A stretch of DNA of 64,000 nucleotides from Anodontia alba (lineage: Eukaryota > Mollusca > Bivalvia > Lucinida > Lucinidae), in contig OZ024828.1 in assembly GCA_964016985.1 (NCBI GenBank), positions 2,257,701-2,321,700 on the forward strand, read 5' to 3'. Below, piece after piece: positions 5,361 to 46,900 of the stretch. A program made the translations under genes and the position numbers. Below the pieces are notes generated by a model. The model was given only the letters and a program-made list of their open reading frames with translations, had not been told where the DNA came from and ran no database searches. How positions within the stretch are numbered: position 1 is the stretch's first letter; every line of letters starts with the position of its first letter.

Positions 5361-6827
5361 ATGTCCTTGGTAAACAGACGTGTCTCAGTACTCAGCAGAA
5401 CCATGTGTCGCCGACATGAATCGGTGTTTGACGATCAAGATGTTGCTGCTGAGTTAGCTGAAATCCATGAGAAGTTTGTCGTTGTTCCAGCCGACAAGGC
5501 ATCTAACAATATTGTGTTTGTTTGCAAAACACACTATATAAACTGCTTAATGGAAGAGCTTGGTATGAGTACCATGACCGGAAACCCTACATATAATCTT
5601 ACTGCTATGTCCAAGGAAGAAATTCTACAAAACCACCATTCGGTGATGCTGACATTTGGAATTTCCCTCCCAGAGGAAGATATTGACCTTCCCAAACTGT
5701 ACTGGATTCCTAAACTTCACAAGAATCCGTACATGCAGAGATATATTGCTGGTTCAGCTAAGTGCTCAACCAAGCCTCTTTCTCAGATTCTAACACGAAT
5801 ACTAACCGCAGTTAAAGAAGGCCTTCAGAAGTATTGTGACACTGCATATGCCAGAAGTGGTGTTAATCAGATGTGGATCCTGAAAAACTCCAAAGAGCTC
5901 TTAGAAAACCTAAAGGCACAATCTCTTCATTCCATCAACAGTATAAAATCTTTCGATTTCTCTACTCTCTACACTACTATTCCTCATGATAAATTGAAAT
6001 CTAAATTAAAGGCAATTATCAACCAGTGTTTCTTCCACAAGAATGGTAACCGTCGATTTCAGTATGTTGTCATTGGCTACAAAGACACATACTTCATTCG
6101 GGATCACTCTGATGCACCACAAAAATACTCAGATGCAGATTTCATTAAGATGCTGGAATATCTAATCAACAATATTTTTGTGGAGTTCGGCGGTCGGATA
6201 TTTCAACAAACAATCGGCATACCGATGGGTACTAATTGTGCACCGTTACTTGCCGACTTGTTTTTATACTCGTATGAGGCGGAGTTTGTACAAAGTCTCC
6301 TCCAAGCAGGCAAGAAACACCTCGCACAACAATTCAATTTCACCTACAGATATATAGATAATGTATTGTCTCTGAAAAACACAAAATTTGCAGAGTATTT
6401 AGAATTCATCTACCCACGTGAACTTGAAATAAAGGAAACAACGGAGACTTCAGCCTCCTCCTCATACTTGGATTGTTATCTCTACATCGACAATGGAAAG
6501 CTTACTTCTAGGCTTTACGACAAACGGGATGACTTCAATTTTCCCATCGTTAACTTTCCTTTCCTGAGCAGTAATATCCCTTCTGCACCAGCATACGGCG
6601 TTTACGTTTCACAGTTAATCCGTTATGCCAGAACTTGTTCAAATTATCAGGACTTCATGGAGCGTGGGAAAGTGCTCACTCAAAAGTTGTTGAGCCAGGG
6701 ATTTCAAAAAACCAAACTTGTAGCAACACTTAAGAAGTTCTATGGGAGACATCATGATCTAGTCAATCCCTACAATGTGGCAGTTTCCAGAACTGTTTCT
6801 GATGTTTTTGCCAGTGACGCGCCATAA
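5361..6827 (+). CDS. Penelope-like reverse transcriptase, 5'-truncated, catalytic Asp changed
   Basis: A 488-codon open frame from an ATG at 5361 to TAA. Motifs in order: PADKAS near residue 43, IPKLHK at 116, motif A FDFSTLYTTIPH at 198 (first catalytic Asp), GIPMGTNCAPLLADLFLYS at 286, YIDN at 331, and RLYDKRDDFNFPIVNFPFL at 384. These are typical of the abundant Penelope-like reverse transcriptases of molluscs and cnidarians, enzymes that copy element RNA at chromosomal ends or nicks. The usual YIDD box reads YIDN (GAT AAT), so the second catalytic Asp is lost; polymerase activity is unlikely. No GIY-YIG nuclease domain is visible before or after it. The ATG is only the first in an open frame; homologous sequence probably begins upstream and is missing. 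A further 3' region follows to about 7145. The YIDD expectation is family knowledge recalled, not searched. Confidence 0.8.
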   Translation: MSLVNRRVSVLSRTMCRRHESVFDDQDVAAELAEIHEKFVVVPADKASNNIVFVCKTHYINCLMEELGMSTMTGNPTYNLTAMSKEEILQNHHSVMLTFGISLPEEDIDLPKLYWIPKLHKNPYMQRYIAGSAKCSTKPLSQILTRILTAVKEGLQKYCDTAYARSGVNQMWILKNSKELLENLKAQSLHSINSIKSFDFSTLYTTIPHDKLKSKLKAIINQCFFHKNGNRRFQYVVIGYKDTYFIRDHSDAPQKYSDADFIKMLEYLINNIFVEFGGRIFQQTIGIPMGTNCAPLLADLFLYSYEAEFVQSLLQAGKKHLAQQFNFTYRYIDNVLSLKNTKFAEYLEFIYPRELEIKETTETSASSSYLDCYLYIDNGKLTSRLYDKRDDFNFPIVNFPFLSSNIPSAPAYGVYVSQLIRYARTCSNYQDFMERGKVLTQKLLSQGFQKTKLVATLKKFYGRHHDLVNPYNVAVSRTVSDVFASDAP

Positions 6828-29475: not shown

Positions 29476-31364
29476 AAAACGCAGTTGCTAAAGAAATCTC
29501 TGTACCACTATCAATTCTTTTTAATAGATAATTCGCAGACGGAGTTTTTGCGACTTTTCTAAAAGCACCGAATGTCTTGCCTCTGTACAAAAAAGATGAT
29601 AAATCTCTTCCATCTAATTACAGACCTATGTCTCTTTTAAGTAATATTGGCAAACTCCAGGAACACATTATATTCAAACATATGTACAACCACTTGCACG
29701 AAAATAATCTCCTTTATAAATATCAGTCTGGGTTTCTTCCTAACCATTCAACTACTTATCAGCTTAATTATCGACATATATCACCACATATGCCAAACAT
29801 TTGATAATGATCAATTCTCAGGCATGGTTTTTTTGTGACGTATCAAAAGCCTTTGACAGGGTCTGGCACAAAGGGCTCATTTTTAAGTTGAAACAGTATG
29901 GCATAAGCGGGTCTCTCCTAAATTGTGTCACACATTACCTTAGTAACAGAACTCAACGAGTCATCATTAGATCCTGCGTGTCAAGCTCTCTGCCAATGAA
30001 TGCCGGTGTCCCCCAAGGATCTGTTCTTGGACCCCTCTTATTTCTAATTTATATTAACGACATAGTTGACTCTCTCCTAAGCTTAATAAGGATTTTTGCA
30101 GATGATAGCTCATTGTTCTGTTCCGCATCCTCCATTCAAGATCTTGAAGGCATAATTAACCACGATTTAAAAATTTTGGCAGGCTGGGCAAAACAGTGGT
30201 TAATAAATTTCAACCCTCTGAAAACTGAAGCCCTTTTATTTACTCTAAAACTGTATGAACACCTCCCAAATATAGAATTCGACGGCATTCCTGTTTCCTT
30301 TGTATCTGACAGACATCTAGGACTGACATTAAGTAACAATGGACGTTGGAATAAACACATAGAAAATATATTGTAAACAGTGCCTCCAAAATCATTGGCA
30401 TTATGCGCAAATTAAAATACACATTCCATAAAGTCGTTCTTAATCAAATCTACGTTTCCTTCGTTTTACCTGTACTGGAGTACTCGGCAATTGTTTGGGA
30501 TAATTGTACCGCCCAGAACTCAAACACCCTTGAAAAACTGCAGAACGAAACGGCCAGGATAGTCGCTGGACTAACCAGGCTGTCTCACTAGACAATTTAT
30601 ATAGAGAATGTGGATGGGTGCCACTGTCTGTAAGAAGACAAGAGCAGAAAGTATCCTTTATGAACAAAGCAGTTAATGGTCTCTCTCCAGGTTATATTCG
30701 AGATATTATTCCTCCTTACGTAAGAGAAACTACACCATACTCATTAAGAAATAATAATAACCTAGTCACCCCAACTACTCGTACTGAAATATCACGGAAA
30801 TCATGTATTCCCTCTTCAGTGACACTGTGGAATTCGCTAGACAATGACATTCGGACTGCAGACAGTCTCTCTAGTTTCAAAAGTAGCATCAAAAGCCAGC
30901 GTCTAAATAACTCCAAAGGCCCTCTGTACTTTCTCAGTGGCAACAGATACTTATCAGTGCAACATGCACGAATTCGCAATAAATGTAGTAACTTAAAAAG
31001 CGATTTATATGACAGTCATCTCTGTCCAAGCCCCATATGTAGTTGCAACACTGCATTTGTAGATGCAGCACATTATTTTTTCCACTGTCCCAGTTTCGCC
31101 GAATGTCGCATGGTTTTGTTCCAAGTAACCCACGCTTTTCATCCTTTCAACATGGATAAGCTTCTTTTTGGAGATGCGAGCATTAGTAACCAACAGAACT
31201 CAGTACTTTTTTCCATCATTCAAAATTTTATCAAAGGATCAAGAGGATAATTAGTAGAAGTAATAACAAAGAATGACAACTGCAACTATTAATAAAAATG
31301 ATTTTTTCTTCAAGAACCTTTTCTACAGGCCTGTTCATCTGGACTCCTGACAAACTTATTTATT

Positions 31365-33048: not shown

Positions 33049-33837
33049 CGTAAGATACACGACCCCTTTGCCTCACCCAACCACGCTACCGGACAACGTG
33101 TATATTTCGTGTTTCGAATACCTATCAGAAAATTCACGTTGGATTCTTGAAGTCTATTTTTTTTAACAGCGCAAAAGTCCTTATCTAACAATGAGCAAAT
33201 AGAATGATTGTCTATGGCAGACGGATAATTATTTCTAAAGATGTGGATTGCCACCGAAACAACGGCTATTATGTGAACCTTCGGAATCAAAGGGAAGTAA
33301 TCAACTAGAGATAAACCGAAATCGGACGTAAAAGAAGTCAATGTAAACCACGGTTGGCGGAAAACTCCTCGTCGAAGTTAAATCAACGCTAATTCATTGC
33401 AAATATACCTGAATTTACTTCAATACGTCTATTAGATACTTCTGATACCCAATTATTGCATTGAAGTACATAAAAATAGATTAAATCAGTAAAATACAAC
33501 AGATTTTGTTATAATCCCCGCCGCCAAAATTTTCCTACCCCCATCCCCTTATCCCCTGTCCACCCTCTCTTTTTTCAACTTTTGAACTTCACCATTTTTG
33601 GTGTTTAAGTATTTAATATGTCAGTGTATGTTTAAGGGAAAGCATTTAGTTGGGGGCACAGTGTTTTACAAACACACTGTCTATAGTTCCTTATTTATTT
33701 TGCTGTGCTAAGCCTAAGCTTAAAATTTGGAAGCCCAGTTTTACCCTGAAATGAATTCTTAAAGGTGGAATTTCTACAGGAGACACACAAATTATTCACT
33801 TCACGTTGGAAATATCTACTGTTGTTTTGTTTTTCAG
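33049..33837. other. No gene seen
   Basis: AT-rich with one C-rich stretch (33515-33565). The segment around 33640 (GTTGGGGGCACAGTGTTTTA then CAAACACA) also occurs near 25788 and marks a dispersed repeat. Confidence 0.4.
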
Positions 33838-33990
33838 GGGATAGCGCGTACGCAGTCCCCCACACTAATAAATTGCGTACCCGAGTTACCCACATTTGGG
33901 GCAATCGCAGGCGTCAGCTCGACCGAAGTGCAATGGAAGAGCCTCTTCCTGGGAGAACCGCCTTGCTGATCACGGTATCTCCTGTACCAG
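33838..33990 (+). CDS. Exon-like segment of unknown gene
   Basis: A 153-nt stretch begins after a good acceptor (GTTTTGTTTTTCAG) and ends before a strong donor (ACCAG then GTAAGTATG). It is open in one frame with phase 1 at both borders, encoding a basic peptide with GDSAYAVPHTNKLRTRVTHI and later GRTALLITVSPVP. I recognise no domain. No neighbouring exon in compatible phase is obvious, so it may be a relic exon of a transposon or a lone exon of a gene whose other parts lie elsewhere. Confidence 0.3.
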
Positions 33991-35412
33991 GTAAGTATGA
34001 TTTATCGTACACGTTTGCTCATTTTATATGAGGGTTATATTATTTGTAACTGGTCTTTTTACAGTCAACCAAAATCGTTTATTTGTAAAATAAGTAAGAT
34101 AAATAACATGTTTCTGTGGGTTTTCCACGACGAGATGAGGTTTCTATATCCACCCTTATTAAATGGTAAATTATCAGATAAAATGGTACATTGATAAATT
34201 AATTACATGCATTTTCTTATCATTTGCACTTCTTAAACGACAACAGATACGGGCTACATGTACGTCTATTAATAGTACAGTACAGGTATGTGTATTCTAT
34301 AAATAGAACAATAGAGGCCAACGGTTCAAGTATTGGCTTTTCAAATAGCATATATTTGTTATCAGCGCTTTGTTCAGGTTACGGTACACATTTCAACGAC
34401 GACACAGATCTAAAACTGCATACTGAGAACTGCCAATGAATCATGAGCTGGTCCAGTTTCGGGTCCCATAATAAGACTTTATAGCCTTTCTTTCTTTCTT
34501 CCATTACGTCTTAACCTCCGAAGAGGACGTCAGACGGGGTTCGGTAAACGAGTGCAAAAGGGGGTTAGCTGAAAATAAAAGAGGTGCACAGTTAAGAAAA
34601 AGAATATAAAGATGTGAAACAAGAGTTAGTATAGTTAAAAGATAAAAGCTTGTTGGGTGTTTAGGGTGAGATATGGACTACTTGGCACACAGCATAGCTG
34701 AATTGTGCCACAGTAGGTAGGACGGGGATGTGGTGTTCTAGGGCATTCCAGTGAACTATAGTACGGGGAAAGAATGTGTACTTGTAATAGTCATGGAGGG
34801 TGGGAATCTGTCTATATGCCAAGGGGTGATTGGACTTAGACGGCCTTGTATTGGGAATAAGGTAGTCTGCTGCAGGTATGGCGACAAGATCATATGTGAT
34901 CTTGTACATAAGAATCAATCTACTGTCTATCCGACGTTGTTCCAGAGTGCGTCAGTTTAGGTCCTTTAACATTCGGATTACACTAGAGGTGCGCTGGTAA
35001 TCACGAGTAGCCCATCTGGCTGCCCTGCACTGAACTGCTTCAACTTTAGCAATATTTGTAGCTGTGTGGGGAGACCAGACCGTCGAAGCATACTCCAACT
35101 GGGGTCACTAGAGTTTTGTAGGCTGTGGATTTGAGGTCCTGATTATGGACCTTAATATTCCGTTTAAGAAACCACAAAGGCTGGTTAGCTTTCTTGGTAA
35201 TCAAATCAATATGGGGGCTCCAAGAAAGGTCATCTGAGATTGTAACACCCAGATATTTGGCCGATGGGACTGTTTGAAGGACAGTGTCATGGAGGATATA
35301 TTTGGTTTGGATGGGACGTTTGGCTCTTGTGATATGCAGGTCCTGGCATTTTGAAGGGTTGAAGCTCATGTCCCATCGTTGTTCCCATTTTTCGAGGGTG
35401 TGAAGGTCATTC

Positions 35413-35631: not shown

Positions 35632-35738
35632 CCCAGTAAGCATTCTTTATAAATCTATAGCGGGCCGTTATCGGCCCGTCAGGGTAGCTGACGGGCCGAT
35701 AACGGCCCGCTATAGATTTATAAAGAATGCTAGCTGGG
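35632..35738 (+). mobile_element. 107-bp palindromic element, copy 3 (TTATAA subtype)
   Basis: Same length and body as copy 2 but opposite orientation (loop GGTAG). It is inserted between AYI and ND of the LINE reading. Comparing with the uninterrupted reading GTCATTTATATAGG gives a 2-bp TT duplication. The site is preceded by GGTCATTT, almost the same heptamer as for copy 2. Confidence 0.9.
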
Positions 35739-35880
35739 TTATATAGGCCGATTCAGGTGTTTTAATAATGGCAGTTCTAAGGCCTGACTCGAAAGCGTGT
35801 GGTCACGAGTTTGATTTCTGCGACAGGTGCTGAAAAAGGAAATTAAGCGCTTTTGATCAGGATCTACACTATGTATATGG

Positions 35881-36105
35881 TGTTACGGCCTAGCACTCCT
35901 ACCTTCGATTATCTGCCTTGGCAGATTACGCATAGCTTCGAAGTATATATACAATCACTGACAACTGCGTCAGGGAGTCGACTCTTTGGCTCAGTGGTTA
36001 GAGCATTGGATTTTTAACCGGGAGGACCGGGTTCGATTCCCAGGAAAGACGGGATATTTTTTCAGCTATGCTTCATTCCTTTGTTACGGCTATCATGTCG
36101 TAAGA
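35881..36105 (+). repeat. TRIM 5' LTR
   Basis: 225 bp. It begins TGTTACGG, contains the palindrome ATCTGCCTTGGCAGAT near its start, and a tRNA-like block at 35981-36052. It has the extra 13 nt (GATATTTTTTCAG) missing from the 3' copy. LTR ends TGTTACG / CGTAAGA are inverted over six of seven bases. Confidence 0.9.
35981..36052 (+). ncRNA. tRNA-like Pol III sequence inside the 5' LTR
   Basis: The A box TGGCTCAGTGG (35987-35997) and B box GGTTCGATTCC (36030-36040) match the consensus exactly at normal tRNA spacing. D-arm stems GCTC/GAGC pair, the T arm pairs at four of five positions, and the anticodon loop centre is TTTTTAA, as in a lysine tRNA (UUU). The acceptor stem pairs only in part (TCTTT/AAAGA), so it is a tRNA-derived promoter rather than a working tRNA gene. 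Confidence 0.7.
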
Positions 36106-36123
36106 TGGGGGCTCGTCCGGGAT
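36106..36123 (+). promoter_or_regulatory. Primer binding site complementary to tRNA-Pro
   Basis: TGGGGGCTCGTCCGGGAT starts directly after the 5' LTR. It is the 18-nt complement of the conserved proline tRNA 3' end, the same primer site well known from some gammaretroviruses. It marks minus-strand priming of the TRIM. Confidence 0.9.
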
Positions 36124-36176
36124 TGGATTTTATACGCCGAAAATGGCTTCACGTCATCATAAATGATGACTTCCTT

Positions 36177-36188
36177 GAAAAGGGGGAG
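36177..36188 (+). promoter_or_regulatory. Polypurine tract
   Basis: GAAAAGGGGGAG abuts the first base of the 3' LTR, the expected place for plus-strand priming. Confidence 0.85.
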
Positions 36189-36400
36189 TGTTACGAACGA
36201 GCACTCCTACCTTCGATTATCTGCCTTGGCAGATTACGCATAGCTTCTAAGTTTTTATTCAATCTCTGACAACTGCGTTAGAGAGTCGACTCTTTGGCTC
36301 AGTGGTTAGAGCATAGGATTTTTAACCGGGAGGACCGGGATCGATTCCCAGGAAAGACGGCTATGCTTCATTCCTTTGTTACGGCTATCATGTCGTAAGA
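36189..36400 (+). repeat. TRIM 3' LTR
   Basis: 212 bp. It is the direct repeat of 35881-36105 with a 13-nt deletion after the tRNA-like block. Its tRNA-like block (36289-36360) keeps the A box TGGCTCAGTGG (36295-36305) and has one B-box change (GGATCGATTCC, 36338-36348). Confidence 0.9.
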
Positions 36401-36404
36401 ATGG

Positions 36405-38362: not shown

Positions 38363-39689
38363 GGGATGTTCGAAATGAATTGCTTATTGTCCTCTAGCTC
38401 GATATCCACGTGGGGCACGATAAAAACCAATACATACCTGTATAGGGCTATTCAATATCTACACAATGGTATATAAATGTACATGTAAGACTAAGTGTAA
38501 GACATAAAATTTGCCATTTGAATACACGCAGTCATTGACCACTGCAGTAAAAATGGTTGGTAGAAGCTTCGACAAAAAAGATGAAATACGGGCTTACGTC
38601 AAAGCTGGCTCAAAACTTGGTTGTTCTTTGAAGAAGCTGATGACTGAAATTTCTACTGCTTTTGGACCTTCTTGTGTGTCTTATGACACAGTTCGGCGGT
38701 GGAAAAAGAACTTTGAGTCTGGTGTAGAGTCCATCAAAAATGCACCGAAATCAGGTAGGCCAAAATCTGCATCTCGTAAAGAAATCGTTTCCAAGTTGAA
38801 GGAGATGCCAGATTTACAGTTCGTGATATTGCACGAAAGGTAGGCATATCACTTTCAACGGTTCACCTTATTTTGAAGAAGCATTTGAAAGTCAGAAAGA
38901 TTTCTGCTAGATGGGTGCCACATCTGCTGACTGACGAGCAAAAGAGGCAACGGGTTAAAGTGGCCAAAAAGCTGCTTCAAATGTTTCCAAAATATGACAA
39001 AAAGCAGTTTGCCAATGTCGTCACAGGTGATGAAACCTGGGTCCATTATTTTGAGCCCGTCAGAAAGGTTAGCAATAAGATCTGGGCCACTAAACACAGC
39101 AAACGCCCAATAATTGCCAAACATTCTTTGAGTACAAAGAAGGTTTTGTATGCAATCTTCTCTGGTGAAGGAGTCGCAATAAAAGTGCCAGTGAAAAAGG
39201 GCAAAAGCATCACCGGAAAGTACTACAAAGACGTAGTACTGAAGAAACTGAAAAAGTATTATCAGAAACGACGCCCTGCCACTGGCTTTAAACATGTCCG
39301 TCTTCTACATGACAATGCCCCAGCTCATACCTCCGCAATAGTTACGGCGTTTTTGAAGAAAGAAAAAGTAACTGTTTTGCCTCACGCCCCCCCCACCCCG
39401 TATTCCCCAGACCTTGCTCCATGTGATTTCTTTTTGTTTCCGAAATTGAAAGCATTCCTTGCTGGGCGGAAATACCAGTCCCGACAGGCACTTGGATCTG
39501 CCATTCATCAGTACCTTATTACTGTGCCCAAATCAGCGTACCGTGACGCCTTCAAGAAGTGAATACATCGGCTGAAACTTTGCATTTCTAGCCACGGGTA
39601 GTATTTCGAGGGCATGAACTGAGTACTTCTGGGCTCACTTGAAATTTGAAGTCTCCAGATAGAAATAAGCAATTCATTTCGAACATCCC
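38363..39689 (+). mobile_element. mariner element with 26-bp terminal repeats
   Basis: GGGATGTTCGAAATGAATTG then CTTATT at the left (38363-38388) is repeated exactly, inverted, at 39664-39689. The element is about 1.33 kb, the usual mariner size. TA lies 6 bases outside the left repeat and 2 bases beyond the right repeat (CCCTCGTA), so the precise ends may include a few more bases. It encodes one broken transposase. Confidence 0.9.
38553..39622 (+). pseudogene. mariner transposase, frameshifted
   Basis: N-terminal helix-turn-helix region from MVGRSFDKKDEIRAY (38553) to SGRPKSASRKE, then a frame change near 38800 (about seven bases missing), then VGISLSTVHLILKKHLKV and the catalytic part: VTGDETWVHYFEP, LLHDNAPAHTS and YSPDLAPCDFFLFPKLK carry the three Asp residues. 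Spacing between the second and third Asp is 37 instead of 34, because a C-rich tract (39387-39399) encodes three extra residues. The frame stops at TGA 39560-39562 after AYRDAFKK; reading on shows a likely original end near 39622 with one further stop (TAG). The enzyme cut and pasted the element at TA sites; this copy is dead. Confidence 0.9.
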
Positions 39690-43936: not shown

Positions 43937-46900
43937 CACTATTTTTCCTCCTACAGTTGATATCCGATCAAGCTGAAAGTGGGTTTGTAGTTAGACCATG
44001 ATGTGAAGCAGCGCATATGGTTCCAGGTTTCAGTCCAACAAAAGTTAGCAATGTTGTGCCTCTTTGAAAATTTCTTTAAACTTTTTGTTTCCGGCAACTC
44101 CTCCTTATAGTTCACATCCAATCAAGCTGAAACTTTGTAAATAGTTACACCATGATGTGAATCAGCGCATGTTGTTTTGAGGTTACAGTCCACCTAATAT
44201 TAGGAGATCTATGCCCCTTTAGAAATTTTGGTAATTTTTTTGGTTTCCAAGTTTACAATTTACATCTGGAGCAGTGAATTGTACAGGAGTCGGTATTGTG
44301 TGCTACATCTTATTACTTGCCACAGGTGATGATACCTCCACTTGTGGAGGTGCTGTTTCTTATTGTAATAGCAGGATTTCCCAGGACTCGCATTTTGGCA
44401 GTTTTTACCCCCAAAACCTTGTTTGGGACCCTTAAAAGTTAGGGACAAGGGTCCTGAGTGATGCATACAAAAGCAAATCCGAAATAATTTTGTTTATCAA
44501 TAAATTTGCATTTTAATCTATTTGTGGGATGAAGATAGAGCTGTCATTGATAGAAACATTTTCATATCAATATATCAAATCTTTAATGTTTACTACTTAA
44601 AAATAGGTTTCTGTCATGTTGAAATCCAAAAATTATGTTATGTAAATTTAGTTTTAAGATTTGGACTGAAGGTATTTAAGCCTCAAAAGTTTTCTCGTAC
44701 TTCTTATACCCCACCACACAATAGTGGTGGGGTATTATGGTTTCATGTTTGACGTCCGTGTGTCTGTCCGTCCCTCCGTCGTAAGTCCGTTTTAAGTTTC
44801 CGGATGATAACTTGAGTAAACATCAATGGATTTTCTCCAAACTTGGTATGTGCATTGATATTGTGGAGATCTGGGTTGGGATTGCTAATGGGCATTATTT
44901 TGTCAAATTTTTAGGGATTTATCTGCCCGAGATACGCCCATATTTTTGTTTCCAGACGATAACTTGAGTAAATAACAAGGGATTTTAACCATACTTGCTA
45001 TATGCATTGACATTAAGGAGGTCTGGTTAGGGATTGCTAATGGGCAAATTTTGTCAAATTTTTACGGAGTTATCTGCCTGAGACTTGCCCACATTTTTGT
45101 TTCCGGACGATGAGTAAATAACAAGGGATTTTAACCAAACTTGTACCGGCACAGTGGCTCAGTGGTAGAGCGTCCGCTTTGTGACCGGGAGGTTGTGGGT
45201 TCGATCCCCGGCCGGGTCATATCAAAGACTTTAAAAATGGTACTAGCTGCTCTTTCGTTTGGCGCTCAGCATTAAGAAAGTAGAGCTAGAACTGGTCAGC
45301 TCAGTGTCAGTATAATGTGACTGGGTGGAATATCATGTCAAAGTGTCTGGGGCGTGATATTTCAGTGAGGCAGCACGCTAAAAGTGAGCATTGAGCTCCC
45401 TGCCACATCCAAACACCGTCGCGATATGACTGAAAAAGGTTGAAAGCGACGTTAAGCCCAAATCAAACAAATAACCAAACTTGCTATATATATTGACATT
45501 AAGGACATCTGGTATGGATTTGCTATGGTAATGGGCAAATTTCATCAAATTTTACGGAGTTATCTGCCCAAGACACGCCCATATTTTCGTTTCCAGACGA
45601 TAACCTGAGTAAATAGCAAGGGATTTTAACCTAACTTGCATTGACCTTCAGTGATTTTTTTAGGCGTGCGTCCTGCATCCTGTATGCATAATTTCGCCAG
45701 AGGATGCAAAAAATTAGCCTCTGTGAGTCCCGTGGACTCATAAAAAATATCTAATGTACGTACGTTTTGCTTCTTGAAGTCTACTTTCATTTTTGGAAAA
45801 AGCGAATGCGCAAGCGGTGTTTCAGTACAGTATTTGGTAAAAGCCAGTACTGAAAGGCGTCGTATCTCTACGGTACACCGATTTTACCTTTAGAGTCAAA
45901 TAATCAATACCAAGTTGTCCAGTATCGGAGGAAACCGTAGCAGATACTAAAGTATTGGTTTTTAGTCTGATGAGATCTTTTATCGTAACACCGTTTGACC
46001 TTGCAATTGTCAACAGGAAACAGCGATCGTTTTTTCTTTTTTTTTTTTTTTTTTTGAAAGAAGAAAAAGATGCACCCTAAAAAGATAATAAAACTAGACC
46101 CCAAACAGCAAATGCTGTTCGGTCTGCTAGGTCAGCAAATCAGACTGACACGGACAACAAAGTCTGAGACTGCCGATGATGGCAATCTCGATAACGAAAA
46201 CCCCCAGTCCCAAACTGAACCCACAAAGCATCAGACAAAAATGTCTCTGCTTTGTATCACGGTCTAGTCAAAACAGACAAAATGTCTGTCCTTAATCATG
46301 TATCACAGGTATTTGATCATCTGTCACTAAAACTGAAGATTTATGAAAACATTTTCATAAGCCTGTGGGTGAAACATTTTAACACTTCACTTTAAATAGA
46401 CAGTGGTATTACAGTTCCATATTTCTCAGGAAGGTTTCTGGAAAGAATTAAAGCAACTCAGTCACCACTATTTACTTTAATTGCACATCCTATTAAAATA
46501 CAAACAAAGTAATTATAAAACACTGTTACACAAGTTTAAATGAAAAGTCTAGGACGCAACAAAATATTTCACCACAAGTCCCAGGCTGGATGCATAGTTT
46601 CAGTTTGGGCTGCATGAATTCTGGACCTAGCGAGTCCCAGGACCCATAAAGGCAAAATTGTAAAAAAATCACTGACCTTAAGGAGATCTGTTTTGAATTG
46701 AATTTGTTCTTTTTTGTAGTTTTTTTCCCTGAACGAATTTCAAAGCCAAAGTCTTGGGCACTTCTTAACTTATTATGGTTTGAAATATTTTGATAATATT
46801 TGGTAGAAGCATAGATAAGGACAAATAGGCATGTCACATGCAAGAGAGGCAACTGTGACTTTATTTCCTACATACTTATCTCATCTGAAGCCCAAAGGTT

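What the first reader, a model, noticed from the sequence alone, without database searches (positions are those of the whole stretch)
35881..36400. Miniature LTR retrotransposon whose LTRs carry a tRNA-like Pol III sequence
Seen: two direct repeats, a perfect 18-nt tRNA-Pro primer site, a polypurine tract, a 4-bp ATGG duplication and an 83-bp internal region. In both LTRs a block has an A box TGGCTCAGTGG and a B box GGTTCGATTCC (one change in the 3' copy) at tRNA spacing, with a lysine-like anticodon loop. Known: plant Cassandra TRIMs carry 5S rRNA sequence in their LTRs. Inference: this is an animal parallel in which a tRNA-derived internal promoter could drive transcription from an LTR element, blurring SINE and LTR classes.
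Basis: partly seen in the sequence, partly recalled or inferred. Interest (0 to 1): 0.9.

Follow-up and report, generated by a model that had tools for sequence, protein, structure and literature searches.

The report
tRNA-bearing mini LTR retrotransposon in clam
This is a tiny, protein-free jumping gene whose repeated ends contain a tRNA-like promoter; it is real and belongs to a large family in this clam genome, but the same kind of element (Helenus) was already described in 2024, also in bivalves.

Summary
It belongs to a large, recently active family: 1812 matches to the block (up to 3 mismatches; reversed-pattern control 0). In 39 loci read, the A box is exact in 80 of 81 LTRs, the B box in 73 of 81; 34 of 39 show a 4-bp duplication. 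The claimed novelty fails: Kojima 2024 (PMC10886601) named such elements Helenus, with 51 families in pteriomorphian bivalves. Added here: the host assembly matches Anodontia alba by size, a lucinid outside Pteriomorphia. The LTRs also hold two T-runs (T5 between the boxes, 81 of 81; T4-T7 after the block, 79 of 81), a TATA-like motif in 77 of 77 counted, and no AATAAA or ATTAAA in those 77. These predict mostly a Pol III RNA of about 85-90 nt that stops before the primer site. The autonomous partner could not be sought (genome search did not complete).

The parts
35877..35880 (.). target site duplication ATGG, left copy
35881..36105 (+). 5' LTR, 225 bp, TGTTACG...CGTAAGA; carries subfamily markers G at LTR position 8, T at 11, A at 71
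35944..35951 (+). TATA-like motif of the 5' LTR; such a motif lies 42-44 nt upstream of the A box in 77 of 77 family LTRs counted; changed to a T-rich stretch in the window's 3' LTR
35980..36051 (+). tRNA-like block in 5' LTR (lysine-type loop TTTTTAA; 5 of 21 cloverleaf pairs broken family-wide)
35987..35997 (+). A box TGGCTCAGTGG, 5' LTR
36011..36015 (+). T5 run in the anticodon loop, between the boxes (81 of 81 LTRs)
36030..36040 (+). B box GGTTCGATTCC, 5' LTR
36057..36062 (+). T6 run just after the block, Pol III terminator-like; T4-T7 in 79 of 81 LTRs
36106..36188 (+). internal region, 83 bp, too short to code for mobility proteins
36106..36123 (+). primer binding site, tRNA-Pro type (identity as tRNA-Pro complement recalled)
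36177..36188 (+). polypurine tract GAAAAGGGGGAG
36189..36400 (+). 3' LTR, 212 bp, other subfamily markers, 13-nt deletion that removes the T6 run
36288..36359 (+). tRNA-like block in 3' LTR (A box 36295-36305; B box 36338-36348 with one change)
36401..36404 (.). target site duplication ATGG, right copy

Best explanation
The element is a Helenus-type TRIM: a non-coding LTR retrotransposon moved in trans by the proteins of an autonomous LTR element, most likely of the Gypsy group. Shown here: anatomy, family, integration with 4-bp duplications, recent activity, promoter-like boxes kept while the tRNA cloverleaf is broken. Inferred: RNA starts about 12-15 nt upstream of the A box, near LTR position 92-95, set by the TATA-like motif plus the A and B boxes; most Pol III transcripts stop at the T6 run (about 85-90 nt); a minority reads on through the primer site and interior and stops in the 3' LTR, so that R is the stretch from start to T6 and serves for strand transfer. 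The primer is tRNA-Pro. Identity as a Helenus-type TRIM: about 0.95. The Pol III read-through step: about 0.5; Pol II from the TATA motif: about 0.4.
For: Structure. 34 of 39 loci show an exact 4-bp duplication, two more a 5-bp one (L010 and L012 are one insertion duplicated). Exact primer site in 34 of 43 full interiors (counted). 34 two-LTR loci outside arrays, window copy left out, have a median of 2 and at most 7 mismatches between LTRs of about 225 bp. Nested insertion in L008 where the duplicated 4 bp are LTR positions 65-68 of the older copy. Tandem arrays sharing LTRs in L003/L018, L015, L016, L022. A and B boxes exact in 80 and 73 of 81 LTRs. Cloverleaf: D arm 324 of 324 cells paired, but 5 of 21 pairs broken in nearly all LTRs. 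No position of A box, B box or T5 (27 positions) carries a variant shared by two or more loci, against 29 of 225 LTR positions (P 0.019, post hoc). Kojima 2024 describes the same combination. Yeast Pol III often reads through first terminators (passages of PMC9278858).
Against: No transcript, small RNA or Pol III occupancy data were available. The autonomous partner was not found because the genome search did not complete. T5, T6 and, in the window copy, a T4 just after the primer site would each tend to stop Pol III before a full template is made. The block as a whole is no less variable than the rest of the LTR (shared variants at 10 of 72 positions, against 10 of 99 before it and 9 of 54 after it), and all copies compared are close relatives, so conservation of the boxes may only reflect youth.
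Confidence: 0.85

Rival explanations
1. Pol II makes the template from the TATA-like motif; the tRNA-like block only yields a separate short Pol III RNA or is a passenger.
For: TATA-like motif 42-44 nt upstream of the A box in 77 of 77 LTRs counted; T5 in 81 of 81 and T4-T7 after the block in 79 of 81. Some Asteraceae TRIMs related to Cassandra lack the 5S promoter and have a TATA box (passage of PMC10853983).
Against: No AATAAA or ATTAAA in any of 77 LTRs; A box, B box and T5 show no variants shared between loci.
Confidence: 0.4
2. A SINE inserted once by chance into one LTR copy, then duplicated with the locus; no mobile family has it.
For: A tRNA-headed SINE-like insertion of another kind does lie in the window from 45148.
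Against: Block in all 81 LTRs at 39 loci on many chromosomes, most with their own duplications; 1812 block matches genome-wide, not each checked to lie in an LTR.
Confidence: 0.02
3. The block is a working tRNA gene spread by the element.
For: Rfam tRNA score above cut-off in the 5' LTR (31.3 against 29 bits).
Against: 5 of 21 cloverleaf pairs broken family-wide, anticodon undetermined by ARAGORN.
Confidence: 0.02

Closest known systems
Helenus (Kojima 2024, PMC10886601)
   Same: TRIM with tRNA-derived A and B boxes in both LTRs, primer site matching a tRNA 3' end (tRNA-Pro among those listed for bivalves), purine tract, 4-bp duplications in animals; tandem arrays reported for one family (LTR-11_DR).
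   Different: The paper's molluscan list holds only five orders of Pteriomorphia; this host matches a lucinid. Its two uses of words on termination concern Cassandra, and TATA has no occurrence in its main text. Comparison with its consensus sequences was not possible.
Cassandra (plants)
   Same: TRIM with a Pol III promoter-bearing small-RNA sequence in each LTR.
   Different: 5S rRNA, not tRNA; plants; Pol III transcription validated according to Kojima 2024 (the primary paper was not held).
biv-TRIM (Satovic 2019, PMC6934838)
   Same: Bivalve TRIM of similar size (repeats 202-218 bp, interior 77-80 bp, purine tract), with arrays.
   Different: No clear primer site; its conserved interior segment TGATCCCAAAGGAC is absent from this interior (read by eye); no tRNA-like block in its repeats is reported in the sections read.

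Membership tests
TRIM | two LTRs around a short non-coding interior, under 1000 bp | tested here: met
   520 bp, interior 83 bp
TRIM | primer site after 5' LTR and purine tract before 3' LTR | tested here: met
   exact primer site in 34 of 43 full interiors; purine-rich tract in all 43 with small changes, one of them a C
[quoted passage not shown]
   TGGCTCAGTGG in 80 of 81, GGTTC in 78 of 81 LTRs
Helenus | 4-bp target duplication in animals | tested here: met
   34 of 39 loci (one boundary shifted by hand; L010 and L012 are one insertion; several sites are AT repeats where 4 bp can match by chance), 2 with 5 bp, L003 without; in L015 and L016 the flank read lay inside the array, so the outer duplication was not tested
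Helenus | recurrent mobile family, not a single duplication | tested here: met
Helenus | sequence relation to published Helenus families | not testable with these tools
   consensus sequences are in Repbase and the supplement, neither open here
Helenus | mobilised by a Gypsy element with the same primer site (proposed for animals) | not tested
   searches for a tRNA-Pro primer site outside the TRIM and for integrase were unanswered (and repeats)
TRIMp3 | active Pol III promoter | not testable with these tools
   no RNA data
Cassandra | 5S rRNA sequence in LTR | tested here: not met
   Rfam lists tRNA and no 5S rRNA in the element

The most novel reading that the evidence does not exclude
The LTR is a self-contained Pol III transcription unit whose start and terminator define the R region: TATA plus A and B boxes start RNA near LTR position 92-95, the T6 run ends it, so the element floods the cell with an 85-90-nt tRNA-like RNA and copies itself only through rare read-through. 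If so, Pol III read-through, not promoter strength, sets the transposition rate of Helenus, and Helenus exists outside Pteriomorphia, pointing to an older or repeated origin in bivalves.
Probability: 0.35. Interest if true: 0.5.

Novelty: new member of a known kind. Interest (0 to 1): 0.3.

Why it matters
It extends a recently named class to a lucinid, a bivalve outside the subclass where molluscan Helenus was reported, which bears on the proposed origin in the ancestor of Pteriomorphia. The paired T-runs and TATA motif turn the open question of whether Helenus is really transcribed by Pol III into a simple RNA-end mapping test. It also warns that tRNA finders can call such LTRs tRNA genes.

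Tried and rejected
Rejected: chance SINE insertion, segmental duplication, functional tRNA gene, membership in Cassandra (see rivals and membership rows). Mercenaria mercenaria as host was considered (1.86 Gb) and dropped: 19 chromosomes and N50 83 Mb do not fit; Ctenoides ales (2.3 Gb) and Xylophaga dorsalis (0.45 Gb) do not fit either. A closer kinship of the block to the window's SINE head than to tRNA genes could not be shown: 50 of 73 alignment columns match the SINE head, 48 of 73 a tRNA-Lys, 46 of 73 a tRNA-Thr (both tRNAs human and recalled). Led nowhere: copy count of the interior, solo-LTR ratio, autonomous partner, real tRNA genes of the host, diverged relatives.

Unanswered: of the genome-search runs three were answered (6, 30, 101); the rest returned 'busy' (19, 23, 27, 49, 56, 62, 64, 65, 68, 70, 72, 75, 76, 78, 80, 81, 84, 86, 87, 91, 94-96, 99, 102, 103, 105, 106, 108, 109, 112, 114, 115, 117, 118, 120, 122, 123, 125, 127, 129, 131).

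Full report
What is there. The element spans 35881-36400. Two direct repeats of 225 and 212 bp enclose an 83-bp interior; ATGG flanks both sides. The interior begins with an 18-nt primer site of tRNA-Pro type (its match to tRNA-Pro is recalled, not computed; no tRNA-Pro gene of the host could be fetched) and ends in GAAAAGGGGGAG. Both LTRs hold a tRNA-like block, scored by Rfam at 31.3 and 22.9 bits (cut-off 29).

Family. The genome search returned 48 matches after scoring 40 of 2542 first-look candidates, so its counts are lower bounds. I read 40 loci, one a repeat view of another (L018 of L003), leaving 39 loci and 81 full LTRs. Exact 4-bp duplications flank 34 of 39; two show 5 bp (L011, L039); L003, an array, shows none; in L015 and L016 the script read the left flank inside the array, so their outer duplications were not tested. 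Two of the 34, L010 and L012, are one insertion duplicated, and several sites are AT repeats. In L008 one element sits inside the LTR of another and duplicates LTR positions 65-68, so the target before insertion is known. L003, L015, L016 and L022 are tandem arrays sharing LTRs. In 34 two-LTR loci outside arrays and apart from the window copy, the LTRs differ at 0-7 positions, median 2: young copies, though the sample is biased to the best matches. The window copy is older or rearranged (12 mismatches and a 13-nt gap). Its 5' and 3' LTRs carry markers of different subfamilies at LTR positions 8, 9 and 11, while in the other 38 loci the LTRs of a locus agree at position 8 (two of the 38, L003 and L006, differ at position 11); normal reverse transcription makes both LTRs alike, so gene conversion or array collapse after integration is likely. 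A 55-nt pattern of the block with up to 3 mismatches occurs 1812 times (890 and 922 by strand), the reversed pattern 0 times; I did not check that each lies in an LTR.

Promoter-like parts. TGGCTCAGTGG is exact in 80 of 81 LTRs and GGTTCGATTCC in 73 of 81, both in 72 of 81. The cloverleaf is broken in the family: pairs 2-70 and 5-67 of the acceptor stem, 29-41 and 31-39 of the anticodon stem and 49-63 of the T stem are standard in only 0-2 of 81 LTRs, while the D arm pairs in 324 of 324 cells. A tRNA product is thus unlikely, a promoter is not. A T5 run lies in the loop in 81 of 81; a run of T4-T7 follows the block in 79 of 81, the window's 3' LTR being one of the two without. A TATA-like motif lies 42-44 nt before the A box in 77 of 77 LTRs counted, and AATAAA or ATTAAA in 0 of 77 (L001 and L012 left out; the window's 3' LTR has lost the motif). 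A T4 follows the primer site in the window copy.

How it works. Movement by an LTR-type machinery follows from the anatomy and duplications; the element is too short to code for it, so proteins come from elsewhere. Which polymerase makes the template is the open point. With the usual spacing of tRNA genes (recalled), Pol III would start near LTR position 92-95; the TATA motif sits at a fitting distance for Pol II or Pol III (recalled). In animals runs of four or more T tend to stop Pol III (recalled); in yeast five T are the minimum, six are needed for fairly efficient stopping, and read-through of the first terminator is frequent (passages of PMC9278858). So most Pol III RNA should end at the T6 run before the primer site, and a template needs read-through or Pol II. 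Against a strong claim: the excess of unvaried positions in boxes and T-runs is weak and post hoc (P 0.019 for boxes and T5; 0.049 with T6), the block as a whole varies as much as its surroundings (10 of 72 positions with shared variants, 10 of 99 before, 9 of 54 after), and a young family says little about constraint.

Host. A mitochondrial contig of 18,475 bp (C317) and chromosome lengths such as 158.84, 147.77 and 143.40 Mb match the assembly of Anodontia alba (PMC13033139, abstract, section list and passages). Small differences remain: total 1862.85 Mb there and 1862.61 Mb here, 336 scaffolds there and 317 contigs here, and some chromosomes differ (99.37 Mb there, 98.95 Mb here for number 10), so the held copy may be another version. 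NCBI places the species in Heteroconchia, Imparidentia, Lucinida. The identification rests on sizes, not on a sequence comparison.

What is known. Kojima 2024 (PMC10886601; abstract, Methods, Results, Discussion, figure legends and tables, and passages read) defines Helenus as TRIMs with tRNA-derived sequence in their LTRs, in fungi, animals and one plant; 51 families in five orders of pteriomorphian bivalves; tRNA-Pro among the primers there; a figure aligning molluscan blocks to tRNA-Lys-TTT; 4-bp duplications in animals; Gypsy as likely helper; and it proposes SINE insertion as origin. In its main text 'heterodont', 'veneri' and 'gastropod' do not occur, and its two uses of words on termination concern Cassandra. 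My searches for Helenus, TRIMp3 and bivalve TRIM terms (9 of 9 listed; 20 of 404 listed; 6 of 6; 15 of 16) listed no paper on Helenus in lucinids or other heterodonts, judged from listings; the library holds only open-licence papers, and the supplement of Kojima 2024 could not be opened. biv-TRIM (PMC6934838; abstract, first part of Results, Discussion) is a different bivalve TRIM.

Verdict. A true, well-read observation of a known kind of element, in a host lineage where I found no report of it, with one useful mechanistic clue in the T-runs. New member of a known kind.

Noticed in passing
G000 C1-C3 and the places: Insertions with an exact block lean to chromosome ends: 11 of 80 on C1-C3 within 3 Mb of an end, 3.2 expected (P 3.5e-4; 0 of 25 on C1, 4 of 28 on C2, 7 of 27 on C3); in the best-match set 8 of 38 against 2.2 (P 0.0013; window and one duplicate left out). 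The 3-Mb limit was chosen after looking, and only the listed exact matches were used.
   Followed up: partly
L010 and L012: Two 3.5-kb stretches near the ends of two chromosomes are 99.8% identical and hold the same TRIM insertion: a duplication between chromosome ends.
   Followed up: partly
window 45148-45480: tRNA-Thr-like head of a SINE-like insertion with AACCAAACTTG on both sides (read by eye), set in a repeat with units of about 150 bp.
   Followed up: partly
window 35632-35738: Two 51-nt arms, 96% complementary, with 5 nt between them, just upstream of the element: a MITE-like hairpin.
   Followed up: no
window 33835-33998, minus strand: U1 spliceosomal RNA match, 141.6 bits against a cut-off of 69.5: a U1 gene or a good copy.
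   Followed up: no
window 5361-6827, 29801-30376, 38873-39562: Open frames with reverse transcriptase (two; the first below Pfam's cut-off) and DDE transposase (below cut-off) matches: other mobile elements.
   Followed up: no
G000:C56 (L041, L045, L046): A second mitochondrial-like contig of 17,203 bp; COX1 found by its Pfam model, other genes judged by eye and lying on both strands, COX1 unlike that of C317: perhaps another animal in the sample.
   Followed up: partly
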